From Paludibacteraceae bacterium (GTDB taxonomy: Bacteria > Bacteroidota > Bacteroidia > Bacteroidales > Paludibacteraceae), in the NCBI GenBank assembly GCA_024401555.1, contig JAKSKV010000024.1, positions 1 to 49,836 on the forward strand: a stretch of 49,836 nucleotides of DNA. The letters run 5' to 3'. The position numbers and the translations under genes are program-made. The notes under the pieces are model-generated. The model had not been told where the DNA came from. It saw nothing but the letters and a program-made list of their open reading frames with translations, and ran no database searches. This document shows positions 201 to 21,636 of the stretch, piece after piece; position 1 is the stretch's first letter; every line of letters starts with the position of its first letter.

Positions 201-1568
201 ATGGAAAAACAAAAAAGATTTTTTCTCACAGAGGATGAGATTCCAAGAGAGTGGTATAACATCGTGGCTGATATGAAAAACAAGCCGCTTCCTATGTTGA
301 ACCCACAGACCAAGAAGCCTATCACAGTAGATGAGATGTGCGGACTCTTCAACCGCGCATGTTCAGAGCAGGAGTTGAACACCACCGACGCATGGATCGA
401 GATCCCTGAGGAGGTACGCGACATGTACAAGAGCTACCGTTCCACGCCGCTCGTCAGAGCATACGGCTTGGAGAAGGCATTGGATACGCCTGCCCACATC
501 TACTTCAAGAACGAGAGCGTGAGCCCTGTGGGTTCCCACAAGTTGAACTCCGCTTTGGCGCAAGCATATTATTGCAAGAAAGAGGGCGTCACCAACATCA
601 CCACAGAGACAGGCGCCGGACAATGGGGTGCGGCCCTCTCCTACGCCGCCAAGGCATTCGGCCTTGAGTTGGCTGTTTACATGGTAAAGATTAGCTACAA
701 CCAGAAGCCTTACCGCCGTTCCATCATGCAAACCTACGGTGCGCAAGTGGTGCCTTCACCAAGTATGACCACCCGTGCCGGTAAAGATATTTTGACCAAG
801 AACCCTAATTACCAAGGTAGCTTGGGTACCGCCATCTCCGAGGCTGTGGAGTTGGCGATGCAGACACCTAACTGCAAATATGTGTTGGGTAGCGTGTTGA
901 ACCACGTGACCCTTCACCAGACCATCATCGGTTTGGAGGCCGAAAAACAGATGGCCATGGCGGGTGAATACCCAGACATCGTGATCGGTTGCTTCGGCGG
1001 TGGATCCAACTTCGGAGGAGTCTCCTTCCCATTCATGCGTCACAACCTCTTGGACGGAAAGAAGACTCAATTCTTGGCTGCCGAGCCTGCATCTTGTCCT
1101 AAGTTGACACGTGGTGTCTTCCAATACGATTTCGGCGATGAGGCTGGTTACACCCCAATGTTGCCTATGTACACTTTGGGACACACCTTCGCCCCTGCCC
1201 ACATCCACGCCGGCGGTCTTCGCTACCACGGTGCGGGAACCATCGTGAGCCAATTGATCAAGGACGGCTTGATGAAGGGTGTGGATATCCCACAACTCGA
1301 AACATTCGAGGCAGCCACCTTGTTCGCGAAGGCTGAGGGTATCATCCCTGCGCCAGAATCCTCACACGCAATCGCTACCGCCATCCGCGAGGCGAAGAAG
1401 TGCAAAGAGGAGGGCAAGTCAAAGGTGATCCTCTTCAACTTGTCAGGACACGGTTTGATCGATATGACTGCCTACGACCAATACATCTCCGGCGACTTGA
1501 CCAACTACGAATTGCCTGAGCAAGAGATTACAGATAATATCAGCAAATTGGAGAAAATCATCAAGTAA
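201..1568 (+). CDS. trpB: Tryptophan synthase beta chain, TrpB2 type
   Basis: A PLP enzyme that joins indole and serine to give tryptophan in the cytoplasm. The 455-residue length and the extra N-terminal segment (EIPREWYN, about 14-21) match the TrpB2 branch rather than the roughly 390-residue TrpB1. The PLP lysine is K114 in the GSHKLN motif; the ETGAGQWG segment and the glycine-rich GCFGGGSNFGG phosphate loop are present. The ATG at 201 follows an A/T-rich leader without a Shine-Dalgarno site, as is usual in this phylum. It stands alone rather than in a trp operon. TrpB2 often works without TrpA, as an indole-salvage enzyme or backup; that role is inferred. A strong terminator follows directly. 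Confidence 0.93.
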   Translation: MEKQKRFFLTEDEIPREWYNIVADMKNKPLPMLNPQTKKPITVDEMCGLFNRACSEQELNTTDAWIEIPEEVRDMYKSYRSTPLVRAYGLEKALDTPAHIYFKNESVSPVGSHKLNSALAQAYYCKKEGVTNITTETGAGQWGAALSYAAKAFGLELAVYMVKISYNQKPYRRSIMQTYGAQVVPSPSMTTRAGKDILTKNPNYQGSLGTAISEAVELAMQTPNCKYVLGSVLNHVTLHQTIIGLEAEKQMAMAGEYPDIVIGCFGGGSNFGGVSFPFMRHNLLDGKKTQFLAAEPASCPKLTRGVFQYDFGDEAGYTPMLPMYTLGHTFAPAHIHAGGLRYHGAGTIVSQLIKDGLMKGVDIPQLETFEAATLFAKAEGIIPAPESSHAIATAIREAKKCKEEGKSKVILFNLSGHGLIDMTAYDQYISGDLTNYELPEQEITDNISKLEKIIK

Positions 1569-1590: not shown

Positions 1591-1622
1591 AACAGGGCTA
1601 CCCGATGGGTGGCCCTGTTTTG
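1591..1622 (+). terminator. Intrinsic terminator of trpB
   Basis: Long hairpin: ACAGGGC T ACCC, loop GAT, GGGT G GCCCTGT at 1592-1618 (12 pairs including one T-G wobble), followed by TTTT. Its right half is the left copy of a direct repeat that recurs at 2665-2688. Confidence 0.9.
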
Positions 1623-1624
1623 TT
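1601..1624 (+). repeat. Left direct repeat flanking the abi gene
   Basis: Twenty-four bases, 23 of them identical to 2665-2688; the exact 20-base core is ATGGGTGGCCCTGTTTTGTT (1605-1624). It is the loop, right arm and T-tract of the trpB terminator. The stop codon of the abi gene (1626-1628) begins one base beyond it. Confidence 0.85.
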
Positions 1625-1625
1625 A

Positions 1626-2525
1626 CTACTGCCACAAAGGCTCCATCTCCCACCCCGGTGGAAATCCAAGCGCTGCTATATCAATCTCGGGGAAATCTAT
1701 GAATAACCACTGTATTTTTGATCGAAAATCATTAGACGGAGATATAATATTCAAAAAGAATCTAATGATGCAAATGTTAAAATAAACCCTCCTTTTATCC
1801 GTTTCCATAATAATCCAAGGATCCGTCATTCCCTTCATATCATTGGGAATTATTTTATTTACTTTATTCCAAACACGAGAATGGTGGCAACAAGCATTTC
1901 TCGTCAGCGTAAGGACAGACAACCAAGACTCAAAGACAGGTGCATGCAGATGAAAACGTTTCGCCACACACTTCTTAATCGACTTGTCCTTTAAATTCCT
2001 AAAATAGATATTGACATTCCCCATCGGCAACAACTCACCGAGGATCCACGCAGGAGGGAATGGTTCCCAATAAGTACATTTAAAATGCTCTATGAAAAAT
2101 TCTGTTGATTTAGCATATTCCCTCTGCAACAAATTATGGCTATTAAAGAAAATGGATTGGTTATGAAAATGATTCGGATTTGTTAACCAATAAATATCAC
2201 CAGTCTCTTCTGCCACGAGATTCATAATCGCCTCACGAATAGAAATTTCGATCTTTTCAATTTCATTGAATAATAAAACCCGTAGCTTTTTATCAAATCG
2301 ATACAACCTAAGGACATCTTCAAACAAAGTTCCATTTTTAAACTGATGATGGGATTTAGGCTCCTGAAGGAATGGGTACATATAAGCAGAGAGACGATAA
2401 TAGCCTATATTCTGTATATATCGTTCAGCCTGTTGAGCATCAGACACGATTAGACCACGAGACTGCAACAGCGTCACCAAGTCAAGAGCATTCTTATAAC
2501 TTTTTGAAAAGCAGATTTTTGACAT
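1626..2525 (-). CDS. Abi_2 (AbiD/AbiF-like) HEPN abortive-infection protein
   Basis: A probable phage-defence protein of the Abi_2 family. The N-terminal half has the family signature: a helix with LLQSRGL near residues 19-25, then YIQNIGYYRLSAYMYPF at 36-52. R209-N-A-C-C-H214 fits the R-x4-6-H catalytic motif of HEPN ribonucleases, so RNA cleavage during infection is the likely activity (inferred from the family). I start at the ATG at 2523-2525 (MSKICFSK), giving 299 residues. The open frame runs 29 codons further, but that extension covers the leader hairpin and part of the promoter and does not resemble the family. The gene is A/T-rich beside trpB and lies between two 24-bp direct repeats, which suggests recent acquisition as a single-gene cargo. 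Confidence 0.85.
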   Translation of the reverse strand: MSKICFSKSYKNALDLVTLLQSRGLIVSDAQQAERYIQNIGYYRLSAYMYPFLQEPKSHHQFKNGTLFEDVLRLYRFDKKLRVLLFNEIEKIEISIREAIMNLVAEETGDIYWLTNPNHFHNQSIFFNSHNLLQREYAKSTEFFIEHFKCTYWEPFPPAWILGELLPMGNVNIYFRNLKDKSIKKCVAKRFHLHAPVFESWLSVLTLTRNACCHHSRVWNKVNKIIPNDMKGMTDPWIIMETDKRRVYFNICIIRFFLNIISPSNDFRSKIQWLFIDFPEIDIAALGFPPGWEMEPLWQ

Positions 2526-2538
2526 TGCAAACAAATTT

Positions 2539-2582
2539 AAAAAAAAGCCCAGCCTATTTAAGCATTGTGAAGAGGCTCGGCT
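2539..2582 (-). ncRNA. Terminator-like leader RNA of the abi gene
   Basis: Read on the minus strand, AGCCGAGCCT (2582-2573), a 17-base loop and AGGCTGGGCT (2556-2547) pair with one G-G mismatch and run straight into eight T residues (2546-2539). This is a complete intrinsic terminator shape, yet it sits in front of the abi start codon at 2525 and just after the promoter at 2596-2627. It would give a short RNA of roughly 50 bases plus some read-through into abi. Structured RNAs upstream of Abi_2 genes (the abiF RNA motif) are known from comparative genomics. Whether this is a member, a cofactor RNA or a simple attenuator cannot be told from sequence. Confidence 0.6.
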
Positions 2583-2595
2583 GGAACTAACGATG

Positions 2596-2627
2596 CAAAT
2601 ATATGAAAACATATCTTCTCTTGCAAA
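2596..2627 (-). promoter_or_regulatory. Promoter of the abi leader RNA and gene
   Basis: Minus strand: TTTG at 2627-2624, a 20-bp spacer, and TATATTTG at 2603-2596. Both boxes match the Bacteroidales sigma consensus exactly. Expected transcript start is about 2588-2590, right before the hairpin. The promoter lies inside the repeat-bounded segment, so the cargo carries its own control. Confidence 0.75.
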
Positions 2628-2664
2628 TAAATATCATAATAAATGTAATATTTACACATAAATG

Positions 2665-2688
2665 CCCAATGGGTGGCCCTGTTTTGTT
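2665..2688 (+). repeat. Right direct repeat flanking the abi gene
   Basis: Second copy of the 24-base repeat at 1601-1624, differing only at its fourth base (A for G). Here the left arm of the terminator hairpin is missing. The TTTG near its end (2683-2686) serves as the -33 box of the promoter of the next gene, so the repeat has a different job at each end of the insertion. Confidence 0.85.
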
Positions 2689-2713
2689 CAATCAAACCGA
2701 ATGATTACTTTTG
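2683..2713 (+). promoter_or_regulatory. Promoter of the YcxB-like gene
   Basis: TTTG at 2683-2686, a 19-bp spacer, and TACTTTTG at 2706-2713, an exact match to the Bacteroidales consensus. The -33 box lies inside the right direct repeat. Confidence 0.75.
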
Positions 2714-2747: not shown

Positions 2748-3245
2748 ATGGAAATTAAAAACGAAACGATTCTGACTCATCAGCAGTTGGCTGAGATTGT
2801 GCTTCGAATGAAAAAAGTAAGGATACGCCAGTTTTTTGTAGCAGCAATTTTCCTTCTAAATACCACCTTATTTATTATGGATTGGGTGAAAACTGGGGAA
2901 ATCGACATGGGTTTGGCGTTTTTTTCGATACTAATGCTTCTAATACTCATTCGTATCCCTATTCGACTACGTTCAACATATAAGGACATCACTGGCAACT
3001 CAGACTCCTCTTGGTCATATATCTTCAAGGATACTGAATTGGAATGTGCTAAGAACGATGGAAGGGTAAAAAACGACCAAGCAACTTATCTTTATGAATC
3101 CCTCTCTCGCTTGGAAATAAGGAAAGATTATATTATCCTATACGTTTCAAAAGCAGAGTTTTTACCAATCGATAAAAAGGGCTTCTCCTCCGAAACCGAG
3201 ATGAATGAGGTGATTTCCGTATTAAGAAGCAAACTGAAAAATTAA
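2748..3245 (+). CDS. YcxB-like small membrane protein
   Basis: A 165-residue protein of unknown biochemical function. Two adjacent hydrophobic segments (about 28-46 and 55-70) are followed by a soluble C-terminal domain with the alternating pattern seen in YcxB-like proteins (YIFKDTELEC..., LSRLEIRKDYIILYVS, LPIDKKGF). In this family the domain sits on the cytoplasmic side of a membrane hairpin. The ATG at 2748 lies about 28 bases after the expected transcript start. It is transcribed toward the convergent glycosyltransferase gene with only 31 bases between them and no clear terminator. Confidence 0.65.
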   Translation: MEIKNETILTHQQLAEIVLRMKKVRIRQFFVAAIFLLNTTLFIMDWVKTGEIDMGLAFFSILMLLILIRIPIRLRSTYKDITGNSDSSWSYIFKDTELECAKNDGRVKNDQATYLYESLSRLEIRKDYIILYVSKAEFLPIDKKGFSSETEMNEVISVLRSKLKN

Positions 3246-7900: not shown

Positions 7901-10534
7901 TCCCTCCTTTTGGTTAGGGTACTTCACGCCGATATAGCGTGAGTAAGGAGAGAAGGGAAGTGTCTCGTAGTTGACACTGAAATCTCCAGTTCCCTCAAAT
8001 ACCTTTGTGGTGAGCACCGCCTGCAACATACCCGGCGCATCAGAGACCTCCGGCATCGCAACCGATTCGCTGGCATCTCCGTTGTCATCGGTAGTGGACT
8101 CCATCACCGTGTTCTCCTCTCCCACAAAATTGGATGCGTCAGGCGATTCGAAAATATAACCCTGATGAGCAGGGAAAGCATTCGGATTGCGCTTGCATCT
8201 TAATGTCACCTCCACCTCTTTGTCCGCGGACTTTCCGCCATGCAACCACTCCGAGTGAACATTCAACTGCTCTCTCGTACCACTTACCAACACCTTGTTG
8301 GCGGCATTCAGCCTCACCTTCAAACGATTGGGTTTAATGGTCTCTATCTTCAACTGTTTGTAGAAATTCGATCCTCCCACATTGAAACTAATGGACCAAT
8401 TACCAGTTTGATCATCCTCCTTGGTAGGGATCCTAAAGCTATAGATGCAGCAGTTCGGATCATATTTCTGTACGCTACGCGCATAAGTTTGTCCACGCGG
8501 AGTCCTTAAATTCATCGTTATCGGGTGATCTTTCGGAAGCGTCTCATCCGCATCCTGAAGCATCAAGGAGATGTTCAATGTATCTCCCGGACGCCACACG
8601 CCACGTTCGCCATAGATATATCCCTTAATACCCTTCGAACAATCCGATCCGCTCACATCGAAAGATGAAAGAGAGAGCGCATTGTTGTCGCGAACACGCA
8701 AATAACCCATCTGGCCATCCTTTTCCACCACCACGAAAGAGGGTGTACGGGAAAGACGCACCGACACGAAGCCATCGCCATCGGTCTCTTCGTTGTCAAT
8801 CTCCTGCATCTGATAATCGTAGAATGTGACACGGACACCCTTCATCGGCGCTGTGGTGAGAAGGTCGGTCACAATGACCTCATAGAAGTTGCTCTTTCCA
8901 CCCTTTGCGATGATACCGAAATTGGAGACGAACACATTGGTCGCGACACCCCTTCCATTGCACAAATAATAGGTGATTTTAGAAGGATCTTCACGATCGT
9001 TCCAATTATAGGCATAATCTCCATTATCGGATGAATTATAACTATAATAATCGTCGTCATAATACTCCTCATCATAATAATATCCATAACTATCCTCGCC
9101 ATGATCCTCCAACTCGCTTACAGGGCTGTAGCTGTGGTCGCTGTCATCAATCGAATCGGTGATCTCGCACGGATAGGTGGAGTAGGCTCTTTTGAACGAG
9201 AAATAGACACGGTACATTGCTCCCGGATCCTCTTTGGACAACTCGGAAAGATCCAAGGAGAAGGTTCTCCAAGCGTAATAATCCATTTGGCTATTCCCTG
9301 GCAAATCGATCTTCTTGTGGAGGATCAGACGGCCCGTGCGCTTCATACTCTCCTTGTTGAACACATTCAAATTGCTCGACTGCAAGTATTGAAGCATATT
9401 GTTGTCGAACACCTTCACGACATCCACATCGACCGACTTCAAATTGACCGCCTCGAAGGGAAGCGTCGCCTTGTCGTTTCGAGGCAAAATCGCTCCCGAA
9501 TTCACCAAACGAACCTGAGGTTTCTCACTTACAAAGGCAAATTGGATGGTCGTATCCCTCTTCAAGGCATCACCGTTCACACCCTTCAAGCCCGCATAGA
9601 CTTTCAGCGTGGATTTGGAATAGCTCACCTTCTCCGGATACACCTTCAACACATTTCCCTCTCGCGTGAACTGGGAACTCTCGTCGTTGATCTTCACATA
9701 AGTACGCCAAGTCTGATCTGGTTTAAGCGGTTGGCTGAAATAGAGTTTCAAATAGGGGTTTTCTCCGCCCACTACATTCAAATCCGTCATCTTAAAACCT
9801 GAAACATAAGGAATTAGCAGCGTCGCCTTTTCTTCGCTGTCACAGTCGATGCGGGTGCCATTCCACAAGATCTCCACCTTTTGGTCCTCTCTCACGCCAC
9901 GTTCGAATCCAGACACGACGAAAGTGAAGCTATTGTGATTGTAGCGGCTTCCCTCCTCATCGCTACCCTCGCGCCATTCCATATCCAGTTGCTTGCGCTT
10001 AGGCGATACGACAGCGGCGGAGAAACATTCCTTTAAGTTCTCCAACTCCTCCCGATCCGCCAAAGAAACCGTTCCCTTCACCTGATAGTCACCCTCATCC
10101 GTCAACTGAGGCGTATCCACCATCACATAAATCTTTTGTCTTACGACTGTAACCGGGAAGATGAATTGTTTCAAATCCTTGTTGGAACCCAAGTTCGCCA
10201 CTTTCCCCAATTCGAAGGTGACCTTATACTCTTTTCCGCGCTCCAGCAACTCCTTGGGATGAAACTCCAACGTATAATTATCCACCCATACGGTCGTTCC
10301 CTCCACGGACGGAGACAAAGAGAAAACCTTCTCGCTCACCTCCTCTCCCGGACGGGCATCGTCACAAGGTTGGGTTAAAACAACTTGAATAGATGAATAA
10401 CGGGAAATGTTTCCCTGCGTATATGCGGAGATGTAATCATAATACAACGTCTCATCCGAAGGCGTCTTTTTCCCGCACCCTATCATCAAAAGAGATAGGA
10501 ACGCGACACACAATAACTTTAAATAACTTCTCAT
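4946..10534 (-). CDS. Alpha-2-macroglobulin family lipoprotein with thioester
   Basis: A giant (1862-residue) envelope protein that traps proteases. The signal peptide ends in a lipobox with the lipidated cysteine at C20 (LMIGC-GKK). The middle holds repeated macroglobulin-type beta domains. The thioester motif is intact: G-C1419-A-E-Q1422, followed by the alpha-helical complement-like domain (LAQSMEYLVGYPHGC and many helical repeats) and a C-terminal receptor-type domain. When a protease cuts the bait, the thioester bonds it covalently; known from bacterial homologues. Residues about 465-515 are a run rich in D, Y and S, likely a flexible loop. Many bacterial homologues are paired with penicillin-binding protein PbpC; none is adjacent here. 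It starts 25 bases after the preceding small exported protein and is followed by the TM2 gene. Confidence 0.93.
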   Translation of the reverse strand: MRSYLKLLCVAFLSLLMIGCGKKTPSDETLYYDYISAYTQGNISRYSSIQVVLTQPCDDARPGEEVSEKVFSLSPSVEGTTVWVDNYTLEFHPKELLERGKEYKVTFELGKVANLGSNKDLKQFIFPVTVVRQKIYVMVDTPQLTDEGDYQVKGTVSLADREELENLKECFSAAVVSPKRKQLDMEWREGSDEEGSRYNHNSFTFVVSGFERGVREDQKVEILWNGTRIDCDSEEKATLLIPYVSGFKMTDLNVVGGENPYLKLYFSQPLKPDQTWRTYVKINDESSQFTREGNVLKVYPEKVSYSKSTLKVYAGLKGVNGDALKRDTTIQFAFVSEKPQVRLVNSGAILPRNDKATLPFEAVNLKSVDVDVVKVFDNNMLQYLQSSNLNVFNKESMKRTGRLILHKKIDLPGNSQMDYYAWRTFSLDLSELSKEDPGAMYRVYFSFKRAYSTYPCEITDSIDDSDHSYSPVSELEDHGEDSYGYYYDEEYYDDDYYSYNSSDNGDYAYNWNDREDPSKITYYLCNGRGVATNVFVSNFGIIAKGGKSNFYEVIVTDLLTTAPMKGVRVTFYDYQMQEIDNEETDGDGFVSVRLSRTPSFVVVEKDGQMGYLRVRDNNALSLSSFDVSGSDCSKGIKGYIYGERGVWRPGDTLNISLMLQDADETLPKDHPITMNLRTPRGQTYARSVQKYDPNCCIYSFRIPTKEDDQTGNWSISFNVGGSNFYKQLKIETIKPNRLKVRLNAANKVLVSGTREQLNVHSEWLHGGKSADKEVEVTLRCKRNPNAFPAHQGYIFESPDASNFVGEENTVMESTTDDNGDASESVAMPEVSDAPGMLQAVLTTKVFEGTGDFSVNYETLPFSPYSRYIGVKYPNQKEGRYIVTNRDQTFDLLLVDPKGNPVTGDGITFKLYKMQWRWWWDASNDNSFAYYTENTYQKPYFEKKNIRAVNGRASVTVNIPNSDWGRYMLVVSNGQSGHKVGGVVFFDWDCWSDRNMENGGESATMLAFNLDKEKYQVGEKVKVTLPTPSEGRILVTVENRTKVLVSKWIDAQPNTTTFEMEVTREMMPNAYLYVNLLQPYERTSNDLPIRMYGVKNFMVESVESVLHPVIKMDDKVESEKSFDVTVSEANGKDMCYTLAIVDNGLLDLTNFKTPNAHSDFFKREALGVNSWDMYNMVIGAYGGKIEQLFSIGGDMALNRDGLNRRFEPVVKFYGPIQLKAGEKKTHNVKLPPYFGSVRVMVVAGNKMAYGNAEKEVKVTKPLMILPTAPRVIGPKEEFNLPVNVFTMDGVSKNVKLSVEAGNKISVLGERTLSQQMTGNDDKIMTFRMKAGSKLGKEKISVSATDGTTTVKSEINLDVRNPNERITQHAFYEVPAGGTVTCPIELFGSEGTNQVLVEMSALPPLNLAQSMEYLVGYPHGCAEQTTSKAFPQLLLPEITEVTESEKTECTKNVKAAIFKLSQMQMSSGSFSYWMGGSYDYPWVTNYVGHFLIEAKNHGYDVPNSVISQFCAYQKRTASSWSYRKNRDYEKLEQACRLYTLALAGKPDLGAMNRLKEMSLDNATTWQLASAYALCGKKDVAKNMCASLSSEAGNSSSHNFGSALRDKALILNAMITTDADRKEAYHLLKRISEDLSKSKQYSTQELANVLVAFANFAKGQPDRKVNAVCEKDGAKVTFSGDCGIIKRSLEVGAAKSQKAVLKNNGQNTLYVTMAISGIPEENMVGAMSNGLDMSVKYSTLGGESFDPTAITQGEDFMAEVTVRNTSSVETYQEVALTQVFPSGWEIQNDRMSNMEEESQNYSYRDVRDDRVMTYFSLSPGEKKSFKVKLHASFIGKYYAPSVICESMYDSEIAAKNTGFWATVKK

Positions 10535-10559
10535 ATTATTTTTTTTTCAAAATTTCTTA

Positions 10560-11228
10560 TCAATGCGCTTCATTATAGTCCTCACGTCGGCCTACCGCCA
10601 CAACGCTGAACTTCCCCTGAACAGGCAACAAAACCAGACAGTTTCCCTTGAAGTATTTCGCATATTGTTTCTTTCGTTCCAGCTCCAAATAGCGTTCCGT
10701 ATCACAATAGATATAGAGGCTATCCGATTTGCCAAACTCACAATGGAGGAAGATCATCTCAAATTGACGGGACAACGAATCAGCCGTCCATCCGTCGGCC
10801 GCAAGGAGCTCCTTATCGTAAAAATCGGAGATGTCCACCTTTGGAATTTCTATTTTTCGATTGCCCAAAGTCTGAAATCGCCACCAACCATCGCACATGG
10901 TTCCACAAACCCATGAACTGAATCCGCAGAGCTGTGTCGTGTCGTCGATCTGCCACCTCTTGACGGAGGCATATCCTTGGTCAGACAACTGGACCAAAGC
11001 GTAATTGTTCTCCTCATAGGACAACAGCCTTGTCGTATCGCCATACAGATTGACGACGACAGCTTGCTTGAAATGCAAACTTCCCATCGACAAGAGCTGC
11101 GCCAACTGATCCTGCTTCAGCTGCGTTGAAGAGGGCATCATACGGGACATATACTGCTCCATAGTTTGCGCCCACCCAAGGCAACAAGAAAAAAGCAAAG
11201 TGAAATATATCGTAATTATACGCTTCAT
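10560..11228 (-). CDS. Small exported protein, DUF3256-like
   Basis: A 222-residue protein with an N-terminal signal peptide (residues 1-20, ending ...LGWAQ). The mature part begins MEQYMSRMMPSSTQLKQ and then alternates beta-rich segments, which resembles the DUF3256 family of Bacteroidetes; I give this name with caution. No catalytic motif was recognised. It opens the operon with the alpha-2-macroglobulin and TM2 genes, so a periplasmic role with the protease trap is plausible. Confidence 0.6.
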   Translation of the reverse strand: MKRIITIYFTLLFSCCLGWAQTMEQYMSRMMPSSTQLKQDQLAQLLSMGSLHFKQAVVVNLYGDTTRLLSYEENNYALVQLSDQGYASVKRWQIDDTTQLCGFSSWVCGTMCDGWWRFQTLGNRKIEIPKVDISDFYDKELLAADGWTADSLSRQFEMIFLHCEFGKSDSLYIYCDTERYLELERKKQYAKYFKGNCLVLLPVQGKFSVVAVGRREDYNEAH

Positions 11229-11298: not shown

Positions 11299-11583
11299 CG
11301 TCCGAAGGACGATACCTCAGTAACCATGTACGTCGCAGCGAAGCAAGACGTGCGTGGTATAAAAACCAAACGGGATCACGTTTCGGTCGCATAGAGCTGA
11401 CGCCCTACGCTGAGGATCCGCACACTTCATGCGCATAGGGCTAGCGCCCTACGCTGAGGATCCTACCGTCTGTCTCATACTCCTCGCTACCATCAGACAT
11501 CGCCTCTCACCTCTTTGCATGCCCCCGCACATCTCGCTACGCTCTGATGTACGGGGTTATAGAGATAGCGTCCTACGGACGCT
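11299..11583. repeat. Cluster of palindromic (REP-like) repeats
   Basis: Five hairpin-forming units in 285 bases between the 3' end of the DjlA operon and the macroglobulin promoter. They are CGTCC-GAA-GGACG (11299-11311); ACGTC/GACGT (11330-11351); two 32-base units at 11388-11419 and 11432-11463 that agree at 29 positions, the second forming a hairpin around GGGCTAGCGCCC; an 11-bp stem with one mismatch at 11523-11556; and the perfect 7-bp stem AGCGTCC-TAC-GGACGCT (11567-11583). No coding frame here is convincing. Short imperfect palindromes in arrays are typical of REP-type dispersed repeats. Confidence 0.7.
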
Positions 11584-19005: not shown

Positions 19006-21636
19006 ATGAAAAAGATATTTTTTACCATCCTACTGGCAATGATAGCGCTCTCCTCCTTTGCCGTCTTGAAGGAGAAAGATTTGGAGCAGACGCTATTGGT
19101 ACTCCGCACGGAACTAGAAACCTACAAAGAGGAGCAACAAGCAAAAATGGAGAAATATGGAGAGATGAGCAAAACACTCCATCAGAACCTCATCTCGACC
19201 ATGCAGAAGAGCGAACAGACTGCCTTGATGCTCTATTCTCAAAAACAGGACTACACGTTCGACCTCGCCTACGCCTGCCACGAGGCAACCCACCAATACA
19301 ACGAATTCTCCAAGAACATGATTCCTTATCAGAAGATCCAGGAGATGTACAAAGTGGAGGTGAACCGCTACAACAGCATCATCGACATTCTCGAAACACT
19401 TCCACCCCGCGTGAAGCCATTTAACTTCTCCGACACGTCACAAGTGCCAAAAATCAGCCGTGTCAGGATGAATCAAGAGGGTGAATTGGACTCCATCACC
19501 ATCAACTTCGCCATCAAAACCGATATGAAGGCAATGAAAACCATGGCCGACAGTCTTAAAAAGAATGGGAGTGTTTTCTTATTGAGCGAAAAGGGTCAAG
19601 CCAACCGCGACTCCTGCCTCGTATTGGCTAAGATCATCCGCGACGACTTGGTCTTTCTCTACAACGAGGTGTCGAAGGATAGTGAACACTACGATTTCGT
19701 GGCGCAACGTTTGAAGAAGGTGAACGATTACGCATTGGACCGCTACTCGGACATCAAAAACCTTATCTTCGTCAATGGAGACGTCAACTACTTCACCATT
19801 CTCGCGAGATGGTCCTACTATTACAACAATGCGAAGAGCGACATCAACGAGAAGTATATGCAGCCTCAAGACAAGAGCATCCACTCCGAATGGCGTGGCC
19901 CTATTGTACTTGGTCTCACCATCTTCGTGGTATTCTATCTTATCGTGGCCTTCACGCTCAGCAACATCATCATCCGCTTCCTGGTACCCAAAAGATTCAA
20001 GACAAAAGCCTTCAACGACAAGAAGCCTTTCTACATATTGGCCTTCTCATTCGTGGTTTTCGTAGCAGTGGTCACCATCCTACGACTTTTCGCGAAACAT
20101 AATTTCTTCATGATGGCCAGCGGGCTGTTGATTGAGTACGCCTGCCTTGTCTCCGCGGTGCTCCTCTCCCTTCTGCTCCGCACTAAGGCTAAGCAACTCC
20201 GTAGCAGTTTCATCATCTACACCCCAATCCTGCTGATGGGATTCGTCATCATCGTCTTCCGTATCATCTTCATCACCAACAGCGTGGTGAGCCTCATCTT
20301 CCCGCCTACCCTGCTCCTCTTCACCGTCTTGCAGGCGATCTCGCTGAAAAACCATCGTACCAAGGTTCACACCAGCGACGGATTCTACTCTTTGGTGTCG
20401 CTCCTCGTCATGCTGACAAGCTGTACGGCAAGTTGGTTGGGCTACTCGCTCCTGGCGGTGCAAATCTTTATCTGGTGGCTCTTCCAGCTCATGGCGATCC
20501 AAGCCATCACCTGCCTCTATTACCTGATCAAGAAGTACGAGTTCAGGTTCCTCACCTCCCGCATCATCGCCAAAAACGATCCGGGCCTATCACTCCGCAA
20601 GGCACGCCAACTCGCCTACGACATGGTGCATCCGAGCAAGCACAACAGCGGCAACCACATCGGCATCACTTGGCCATACGATCTCTTCATCAAGACCTTG
20701 GTGCCTATCTTCATCATCATCTCCGTACTACTTTGCTTCGTCTTGGCGGCAGGCATATTCGACCTTTCGGAAACGCTCCGTCAACTCTTCTACAAGAACT
20801 TCATCAATGTGGAGGGCGTGTGTCAACTCTCTCTCTTCAAGCTGCTGGTCATCTCAATCAGTTTCTTCTGCTGCAGGTTTATCTGTTACGGAACAAAGTC
20901 CGTTTACAAGTATTACCGCCTCAACCACATCACCATCAACGGAGAGGCCAATATCACACTGGCCAACAACATGATCTCCATTCTTGTTTGGGGCGCATTC
21001 TTCATCTTCGTGCTGGTATTCCTCAAAGTACCTAAATCCGGCATCTCCATCGTGACGGCAGGTTTGGCAACCGGTGTCGGTTTCGCCATGAAGGATGTCA
21101 TCGAGAACTTCATCTACGGACTCTCCCTAATGACAGGACGCGTACGAGTGGGCGACTATGTGGAGTGTGACGGTGTCAGGGGAAAGGTGGATTCCATCAC
21201 TTACCAAAGCACCCAAATGATCACCACGGACGGCTGCGTCATCGCCTTCCTCAACTCCGCCCTTTTCAATAAGAGTTTCAAAAACCTCACCCGCAACCAC
21301 GGCATGGAGTTCATCAAAATCAATGTGGGCGTCAGCTACGGTTCCGACATCAAAGAGGTCAGGAAGATACTAATCCATGCGTTGGACGTCTTGCGCAAAC
21401 CTGACCACGAAGGAGTCACATGGATCGACACCACCAAGGGAATCAACGTTGTCTTAGGCGATTTCGGCGACAATAGTGTGGATCTTTACGTCACCTTCTG
21501 GGGTATGGTCGAGAAGCGTTTCGCCCTCTGCGGAAGAGCCAAAGAGATCATCTACGATACCCTCAACGCACACAACGTGGAGATACCGTTCCCTCAAAGG
21601 ACGATTTATATCAAGGAGATGCCTGGGGAGAAATAG
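19006..21636 (+). CDS. Large MscS-family mechanosensitive channel
   Basis: An 876-residue membrane channel that opens under turgor stress. A signal peptide (MKKIFFTILLAMIALSSFA) leads into a helical, mostly coiled periplasmic domain of about 280 residues, then a series of membrane helices (about 305-620), the pore helix with AGLATGVGFAMKDVIENFIYGL, and the cytoplasmic MscS beta domain (VRVGDYVECDGVRGKVDSI, then TTDGCVIAFLNS). The size and extra helices resemble MscK/YbdG-like long members. I start at the ATG at 19006; a TTG three codons earlier is in frame but less likely. The gene runs alone, between the dinD relic and a convergent hydrolase gene. Confidence 0.9.
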   Translation: MKKIFFTILLAMIALSSFAVLKEKDLEQTLLVLRTELETYKEEQQAKMEKYGEMSKTLHQNLISTMQKSEQTALMLYSQKQDYTFDLAYACHEATHQYNEFSKNMIPYQKIQEMYKVEVNRYNSIIDILETLPPRVKPFNFSDTSQVPKISRVRMNQEGELDSITINFAIKTDMKAMKTMADSLKKNGSVFLLSEKGQANRDSCLVLAKIIRDDLVFLYNEVSKDSEHYDFVAQRLKKVNDYALDRYSDIKNLIFVNGDVNYFTILARWSYYYNNAKSDINEKYMQPQDKSIHSEWRGPIVLGLTIFVVFYLIVAFTLSNIIIRFLVPKRFKTKAFNDKKPFYILAFSFVVFVAVVTILRLFAKHNFFMMASGLLIEYACLVSAVLLSLLLRTKAKQLRSSFIIYTPILLMGFVIIVFRIIFITNSVVSLIFPPTLLLFTVLQAISLKNHRTKVHTSDGFYSLVSLLVMLTSCTASWLGYSLLAVQIFIWWLFQLMAIQAITCLYYLIKKYEFRFLTSRIIAKNDPGLSLRKARQLAYDMVHPSKHNSGNHIGITWPYDLFIKTLVPIFIIISVLLCFVLAAGIFDLSETLRQLFYKNFINVEGVCQLSLFKLLVISISFFCCRFICYGTKSVYKYYRLNHITINGEANITLANNMISILVWGAFFIFVLVFLKVPKSGISIVTAGLATGVGFAMKDVIENFIYGLSLMTGRVRVGDYVECDGVRGKVDSITYQSTQMITTDGCVIAFLNSALFNKSFKNLTRNHGMEFIKINVGVSYGSDIKEVRKILIHALDVLRKPDHEGVTWIDTTKGINVVLGDFGDNSVDLYVTFWGMVEKRFALCGRAKEIIYDTLNAHNVEIPFPQRTIYIKEMPGEK

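What the first reader, a model, noticed from the sequence alone, without database searches (positions are those of the whole stretch)
1601..2688. Single-gene defence cassette inserted into a terminator, with 24-bp direct repeats
The Abi_2 gene with its promoter lies between two 24-base copies (23 identical) of the right half of the trpB terminator. The abi stop codon is one base from the left copy. The left copy completes the trpB terminator; the right copy supplies the TTTG -33 box (2683-2686) of the next gene, spaced 19 bp from TACTTTTG. So before insertion the terminator T-tract probably doubled as that -33 box, and the insertion kept both functions. The unit is about 1.06 kb with no transposase, which suggests a recombinase acting in trans or short-repeat recombination.
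Basis: partly seen in the sequence, partly recalled or inferred. Interest (0 to 1): 0.82.

Follow-up and report, generated by a model that had tools for sequence, protein, structure and literature searches.

The report
Defence gene bracketed by duplicated terminator
A small bacterial self-defence unit (a toxin gene with its likely RNA antidote) sits between two copies of its neighbour's transcription stop signal, and a similar layout brackets several other single defence-type genes in this genome, which hints at how such lone genes are gained and lost.

Summary
The repeats are real: 1601-1624 and 2665-2688, 23 of 24 identical, 1,064 bp apart, specific to this locus. The unit is not a single gene: an AbiF-type HEPN toxin (PDB 8vz6, full length, E 7.8e-109) is preceded by an abiF RNA (Rfam RF03085, 47.5 bits), together a type III-like toxin-antitoxin pair. 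Insertion at trpB is plausible but unproven, as no empty trpB-YcxB site was found. Indirect support: in 1.46 Mb of this genome, duplicated terminators also bracket two Rpn genes and a Fic gene, and a duplicated hairpin a DUF4143 ATPase. One Rpn insertion is polarised: all 10 relatives with both flanks on one piece (of 12 examined) lack it. Direct repeats flank 15 of 67 family abi loci against 3 of 118 control ORFs and 13 of 500 own-genome ORFs. Most likely: accessory cassettes gained with a copy of the local terminator and exchanged at those repeats; enzyme unknown.

The parts
201..1568 (+). TrpB-like gene, host gene whose terminator is duplicated
   Evidence: Pfam PF00291 2.4e-43; NCBIfam NF009057 2e-211
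1591..1619 (+). left terminator hairpin (complete), between convergent trpB and abi
   Evidence: RNAfold -23.9 kcal/mol
1601..1624 (+). left 24-bp repeat copy (right half of hairpin plus T-tract)
1626..2525 (-). abiF/abiD-type toxin gene, 299 aa, HEPN motif RNACCH at residues 209-214
   Evidence: Pfam Abi_2 3.4e-51 (on the 328-aa ORF); PADLOC AbiD 2.5e-60; PDB 8vz6 7.8e-109; motif. NCBIfam gave no family at E 0.001
2548..2584 (-). abiF RNA (RF03085), putative RNA antitoxin, followed by its own T-run (about 2540-2547)
   Evidence: cmscan 47.5 bits, gathering 37
2596..2627 (-). predicted promoter of abiF RNA and abi: -7 TATATTTG 2603-2596, -33 TTTG 2627-2624, spacing 20
   Evidence: sequence; Bacteroidota promoter consensus recalled, not from a call
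2542..2659 (.). 118-bp block identical between this genome and G008 (RNA, promoter, upstream palindrome)
2644..2656 (.). palindrome TGTAATATTTACA, also found upstream of several Rpn genes
2665..2688 (+). right 24-bp repeat copy, hairpin left arm mostly lost
2683..2713 (+). predicted YcxB promoter: -33 TTTG 2683-2686 inside the repeat, -7 TACTTTTG 2706-2713
   Evidence: consensus recalled
2748..3245 (+). YcxB-like gene
   Evidence: Pfam PF14317 4.3e-08

Best explanation
The unit is an AbiF-type toxin-antitoxin cassette: an abiF RNA with its own promoter and terminator, then a HEPN RNase toxin made by readthrough and restrained by the RNA (mechanism by homology to AbiFCd/RCd22 and PbAbiF). It was gained between trpB and the YcxB-like gene with duplication of the local terminator, so trpB kept a terminator and YcxB kept its -33 box. 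A similar mode built other loci of this genome: accessory genes bracketed by two copies of a neighbouring gene's terminator. Cassettes are then gained, lost or exchanged between those repeats. Shown: repeats, toxin family, RNA, recurrence, one polarised Rpn insertion, different unit content or order at the rng array and at the YcxB site of G008. Inferred: that the copy at trpB arose at insertion, and that recombination at terminator repeats rather than a dedicated integrase does it.
For: abiF RNA 47.5 bits; Abi_2; PDB 8vz6 full length; RNxxxH kept. Repeat pair specific to this locus and present in two species. In 1,458,908 of 3,520,802 bases, 13 of 500 tested ORFs have flanking repeats of score 20 or more; terminator or hairpin repeats found at only 2-3 places in the sample bracket Rpn (C1, 37 bp), Rpn (C138, 43), Fic (C73, 39; three places), a DUF4143 ATPase (C116, 52) and abi (24). 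At the C1 Rpn site 12 relatives were examined and 10 had both flanks on one piece: all 10 lack rpn, best repeat score in the gap 7-17 against 37 here; G008 shows one terminator there. The rng array carries the rng terminator repeat in both species with different unit order. Repeats flank 15 of 67 family abi loci (the window included) versus 3 of 118 control ORFs.
Against: No empty trpB-YcxB site found. G008 has both copies without the toxin. The copies are more alike within each genome than between genomes (two informative sites), which needs conversion or independent insertions. Repeats at other abi loci are heterogeneous, so one mechanism is not required. Of 18 Rpn loci evaluated (one without usable flank) 5 had repeats of score 20 or more: one a terminator (C1), one a tandem duplication (C95), the rest other or hairpin-like repeats. 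Of four locally duplicated terminator clusters found, the one on C94 brackets no ORF of 110 aa or more. Not all bracketed units match: C149 and C116:40230 have repeats that include a gene start.
Confidence: 0.56

Rival explanations
1. Independent insertions: the cassette entered the same terminator separately in this species and in G008, each time copying the local sequence.
For: Within-genome copies share two states that differ between genomes. The 118-bp RNA/promoter block is 100% identical while the stretch from the RNA through YcxB is 85% and trpB 87% identical. For E. coli rpnC two independent insertions into one locus have been suggested (PMC5350276, section 31 read).
Against: The junction beside the right copy is shared (TTTACACAT, then AAA), and this genome's right copy looks like a shortened form of G008's complete one, a 1-base and a 4-base gap in the alignment. 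Constraint on RNA and promoter could also give the identity.
Confidence: 0.25
2. Site-specific integration by a recombinase in trans: the repeats are attL and attR at a gene's 3' end and the cassette is a cargo-only element.
For: Repeats of 24-53 bp, exact at four of the five loci, at host gene ends that keep the host signals; no recombinase ORF inside the unit.
Against: Each locus copies its own terminator, repeat lengths vary, and I saw no common core. Recombinase genes were not searched for.
Confidence: 0.12
3. The second terminator copy is an unrelated local duplication or gene conversion, and abi arrived by ordinary homologous replacement of flanks.
For: Tandem or partial duplications around Rpn and abi genes exist (C95, G252, G253); one locally duplicated terminator pair (C94) brackets no sizeable gene.
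Against: Three of four locally duplicated terminator clusters bracket accessory genes (C73, C1, C95), and C138 and C116 add two more.
Confidence: 0.2
4. Generic terminator motif or chance repeat.
For: None found.
Against: Core 16-mer exact only at these two places in the genome; genus-wide only here and at the matching locus of G008.
Confidence: 0.01

Closest known systems
AbiF/AbiD (Abi_2) with abiF RNA: AbiFCd-RCd22 of C. difficile (PMC12373285) and PbAbiF (probably PDB 8vz6)
   Same: Abi_2/HEPN toxin with RNxxxH; abiF RNA upstream with predicted promoter and terminator; 8vz6 aligns over the full length
   Different: One RNA motif instead of the two in RCd22; chromosomal, between repeats of a host terminator; function not tested
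Rpn single-gene units (PMC10327210, PMC5350276); two Rpn genes here pass the NCBIfam Rpn cut-off (TIGR01784)
   Same: Lone defence-type genes gained or lost as single units without a conventional transposase
   Different: PMC10327210 reports no target-site duplications and variable ends; here two Rpn genes are bracketed by exact terminator copies
Integron gene cassettes (recalled)
   Same: Units punctuated by hairpin repeats, as in the rng array
   Different: The repeat is the host gene's own terminator and differs between loci; an integrase was not searched for
Insertion sequences with target-site duplication (recalled)
   Same: Insertion with direct repeat of the target
   Different: No inverted ends, no transposase ORF; repeat lengths vary

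Membership tests
AbiF type III-like toxin-antitoxin | Abi_2 domain protein | tested here: met
   PF07751 3.4e-51, residues 65-249 of the 328-aa ORF
AbiF type III-like toxin-antitoxin | HEPN RNase motif RNxxxH at the solved position | tested here: met
   RNACCH 209-214, aligned with RNSCCH of 8vz6
AbiF type III-like toxin-antitoxin | abiF RNA directly upstream on the same strand | tested here: met
   RF03085 47.5 bits at 2584-2548, 22 bases before the ATG
AbiF type III-like toxin-antitoxin | toxin restrained by RNA binding | not testable with these tools
   needs expression or binding assay
Insertion sequence or transposon | transposase ORF in the unit | tested here: not met
   among ORFs of at least 60 aa only abi and a 72-aa overlapping ORF lie between the repeats
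Insertion sequence or transposon | terminal inverted repeats | tested here: not met
   0 inverted pairs in 1500-2800 at the tool's defaults
Integron cassette array | cassette-borne attC-type site common to cassettes | tested here: not met
   no attC model was run; each locus duplicates its own terminator
Integron cassette array | integron integrase | not tested
   no search for IntI was made
Terminator-bracketed cassette (pattern proposed here) | empty site with a single terminator copy | tested here: inconclusive
   shown for the C1 Rpn unit; not found for trpB

The most novel reading that the evidence does not exclude
An undescribed route inserts single toxin-antitoxin and defence genes at the 3' terminators of host genes and copies the terminator each time, so host transcription is unharmed; the repeats then act as junctions where units are swapped, giving terminator-punctuated arrays as at rng. 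AbiF, Rpn, Fic and DUF4143 ATPases are cargo, and a palindrome shared by this AbiF and several Rpn units marks or regulates them.
Probability: 0.2. Interest if true: 0.85.

Novelty: new variant of a known kind. Interest (0 to 1): 0.6.

Why it matters
How lone defence genes without a transposase move is an open question. For Rpn genes a preprint states that no identifiable target-site duplications are found (PMC10327210, section 4 read). Terminator copies as footprints, with one insertion polarised against ten relatives, would make that question testable in this genus. G008 and other abiF RNA loci also show the toxin gene missing while the RNA sequence remains.

Tried and rejected
Rejected: generic terminator motif; chance; insertion sequence. 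The DUF262/GmrSD unit at C1:119.8k looked like another case, but its repeat is a dispersed element (8 places in the sampled part; more), as are those of C136 (15) and C71 (11); none is counted as terminator duplication. I first took the rng locus of G008 for a clean empty site (note); fuller sequence showed an array with other content, so it is not used as one. A note of mine calls the copy at C73:29412 a fourth terminator; it is a copy of the 3' end of the GmrSD/HNH gene (41 of 43 bases). I first guessed that the conserved 2.6 kb beside the orphan RNAs was rRNA; its last 700 bases hold no rRNA match and it carries a 798-aa ORF (that this is a cellobiose phosphorylase is recalled).

Selection on orphan abiF RNAs is not claimed: at the shared genus site the flanks are mostly 95-98% identical (89-94% for G004), so 37-nt identity is not surprising, and several promoters look changed. 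Led nowhere: YcxB protein and leader pattern in viral contigs. Abi protein: one viral contig at 60%; 419 plasmid and 55 phage records, best listed 46% and 30% identity, one record in each in the 60-80% band that was not among the rows shown. Paper searches for terminator-targeted insertion (listings only) showed nothing to the point; subscription journals are mostly not held.

Sampling bias: the 1.46 Mb of own genome is not random. The first 1.057 Mb came from contigs whose lengths earlier hits had shown, plus some contigs picked by number; C126, C95, C93, C136 and C138 were fetched because searches had hit Rpn, Fic or repeats there, C116, C85, C111, C103, C68 and C75 because a dispersed repeat had. 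ORFs are mechanical; whether cargo is accessory was judged by eye and by Pfam for those named. Of 71 abi loci, 4 were dropped before the count (3 duplicates, 1 short flank). Of the 3 control hits, two are neighbouring genes in L159 that look like paralogues and one is the G005 gene described in the report; the 13 own-genome hits include abi and Rpn themselves.

Full report
What is there. The two repeats are at 1601-1624 and 2665-2688, 23 of 24 bases identical, 1,064 bp apart. The left copy is the right half of a strong hairpin behind the TrpB-like gene (RNAfold -23.9 kcal/mol); the right copy has lost most of its left arm (-5.1). The core GGGTGGCCCTNTTTTG occurs without mismatch only at these two places in the 3.52-Mb genome; 14 further places have two mismatches, and the backward control gives 2. 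In 16 genus genomes a longer pattern has 0-1 mismatch only here and twice at the matching locus of G008; the other listed places have 3. So the pair is specific to this locus.

The cargo. The protein has an Abi_2 domain (3.4e-51), matches PADLOC AbiD (2.5e-60), has no NCBIfam match at E 0.001 and aligns over its full length with PDB 8vz6 (7.8e-109). Its RNACCH motif aligns with R210 and H215 of 8vz6. PMC12373285 (Discussion part 1 read) says that the R210A+H215A variant of PbAbiF is inactive; that 8vz6 is PbAbiF is my inference from this numbering. Upstream on the same strand is an abiF RNA (RF03085, 47.5 bits, gathering 37). The 328-aa ORF begins between the predicted -33 and -7 boxes, so the likely start is the ATG at 2525, giving 299 aa. 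In C. difficile the corresponding RNA mostly ends at a terminator before the toxin gene and neutralises the toxin by binding (same paper; abstract, Results part 1 and Discussion part 1 read). By homology this unit is a type III-like toxin-antitoxin pair; nothing was tested functionally here.

The nearest relative. G008 contig C94 has the same length and match position as the public MAG contig JAKSKY010000035.1, Paludibacteraceae bacterium Horse_feces85. It has the YcxB-like gene (78% aa identity), the abiF RNA and two terminator copies, but no abi gene between RNA and left copy; the genome (88% complete) gave only a 30-residue match, in the RNA region, to the abi ORF. A block of 118 bp with RNA and promoter is identical to the window, while trpB is 87% and the stretch from RNA through YcxB 85% identical. 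G008's right copy is a complete hairpin (-21.8); the window's right copy lacks five bases of it in the alignment, GGGC among them. The contig starts 53 bases before the left core and G008's trpB lies, cut off, on another contig, so adjacency to trpB is inferred. The copies are more alike within each genome than across (two informative sites): gene conversion or independent insertions would explain this.

Search for an empty site. Of 16 genus genomes 9 have a YcxB match, but only this genome and G008 are above 75% identity; the others are at 25-29%. A genome-contig scan found 10 loci, one close, which is G008 itself. So insertion at trpB cannot be proven from these data.

Is the architecture recurrent? 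I scanned 1,458,908 of 3,520,802 bases of the same genome (not a random sample, see Tried and rejected). Of 500 tested ORFs (200-460 aa), 13 have flanking direct repeats of score 20 or more. Terminator or hairpin repeats found at only two or three places in the sample bracket: an Rpn gene on C1 (37 bp, exact), an Rpn gene on C138 (43, exact), a Fic gene on C73 (39, exact, three places), a DUF4143 ATPase on C116 (52, exact; strong hairpin, weak T-run) and abi (24, one mismatch) (families). Three others carry dispersed repeats and are not counted. The rest are two tandem Rpn ORFs (C95), a RhuM gene (C116) and a YhcG nuclease gene (C149) whose repeats include a gene start, and an unknown 208-aa gene (C69). 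Among 878 terminator predictions in 1.13 Mb (both strands counted), four local clusters of duplicates were found: C73, C1, C95 and C94; the C94 pair brackets no ORF of 110 aa or more. That scan misses the window pair, whose right hairpin is broken.

Polarity. At the C1 Rpn site the flanking genes (GH43 and BD-FAE) are kept in relatives. Of 12 genus relatives examined, 10 had both flanks on one piece; all 10 lack rpn, the spacing is 943-1,128 bp shorter, and the best repeat score in the gap is 7-17. G008 has a single terminator there. This is an insertion in the lineage of the window genome, with a terminator copy.

The rng array. In this genome: rng (Rne/Rng family) - T - ATPase, EcoRI-type methylase, GmrSD/HNH gene - T - Fic - T - ATPase, then a 43-base copy (41 identical) of the 3' end of the GmrSD/HNH gene. 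The first two T copies share 53 bp, the last two 39. In G008, on two contigs whose adjacency I infer, the same terminator repeat (one near-exact and two diverged copies) punctuates an array with the ATPases in the other order; no Fic gene was seen in the stretches held, and the rng-region query gave no Fic match in G008. This fits exchange of units between terminator repeats.

Abi loci in general. In the family 68 of 358 genomes have an Abi match. Of 67 loci tested (71 fetched, 4 dropped), 15 have flanking repeats of score 20 or more, against 3 of 118 control ORFs (Fisher p 2.3e-5) and 7 of 357, later 13 of 500, own-genome ORFs (p 1.6e-8 and 3.0e-8). The repeats differ in kind (my reading): duplicated promoter and abiF RNA (G252, G253), promoter with an RNA-like hairpin that is not an Rfam hit (G003, G002), promoter only, terminators, other intergenic repeats, coding-like. 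Some loci are orthologous, so they are not independent. Of 28 abiF RNA loci above cut-off examined (of 42 above cut-off), 7 had no Abi segment in the flanks held, up to 1.5 kb on each side, for G008 only 351 bases on the toxin side. In G005 a 366-aa gene without Pfam or PADLOC match stands after such an RNA between two copies of the RNA's 3' end and T-tract.

How it likely works. Shown: locus-specific terminator copies around the unit, recurrence around other accessory genes, one polarised insertion, different unit content between two species. Inferred: the copy at trpB arose when the AbiF cassette was gained, and recombination at the repeats adds, removes or swaps cassettes. Which enzyme acts is unknown. 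A preprint on Rpn genes reports single-gene gain and loss without target-site duplications (PMC10327210, outline and section 4 read); the exact terminator copies around two Rpn genes here differ from that.

A further link. The palindrome TGTAANNNTTACA occurs 6 times in 1.46 Mb (one shuffled control: 1), 5 of them near Rpn or abi starts. At 1 mismatch or fewer it precedes 10 of 1,036 own ORFs but 10 of 22 Rpn loci of this and related genomes (rows printed before an error). Other abiF RNA loci lack it: 0 of 22 besides the window and G008. It may be an operator or a cassette-end element.

Noticed in passing
window 2644-2656; G000 C105:27541, C89:9623, C95 (L333 local 3352), C138:76787: Palindrome TGTAANNNTTACA upstream of Rpn genes and of this abi; possible shared operator or cassette-end element.
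   Followed up: partly
L129, L130, L131, L137, L139, L144, L149: abiF RNAs above the Rfam cut-off without an Abi segment in the flanks held; G005 and G010 gave no Abi match at E 0.001 in the whole genome.
   Followed up: partly
L155:5019-6360: 366-aa gene without Pfam or PADLOC match between two copies of the 3' end of an abiF RNA plus T-tract in G005.
   Followed up: partly
L204 (G252:C71) and L203 (G250:C33): Promoter and abiF RNA duplicated on both sides of abi in G252, while G250 has one such RNA and no abi; may be filled and empty forms of one site, but flanking synteny is patchy.
   Followed up: partly
L257 1100-9500 (G000 C73) and L382, L383 (G008): Terminator-punctuated array of ATPase, EcoRI-type methylase, GmrSD/HNH and Fic genes behind rng, with different order in the two species.
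   Followed up: partly
G000 C13 about 20411-21070 (L247): Array of about 47-bp direct repeats with about 77 bp period, looks like a CRISPR array.
   Followed up: no
G000 C1:119788 and C1:121072, C136, C85, C116, C149; window 11523-11582: Dispersed, palindrome-rich repeat of about 60 bp with many copies in this genome, one in the window.
   Followed up: no
literature: cyanophage S-CREM1, position 10531-10567: A paper reports an abiF RNA in a lytic cyanophage (PMC9964418, passages seen); could be a decoy antitoxin.
   Followed up: no
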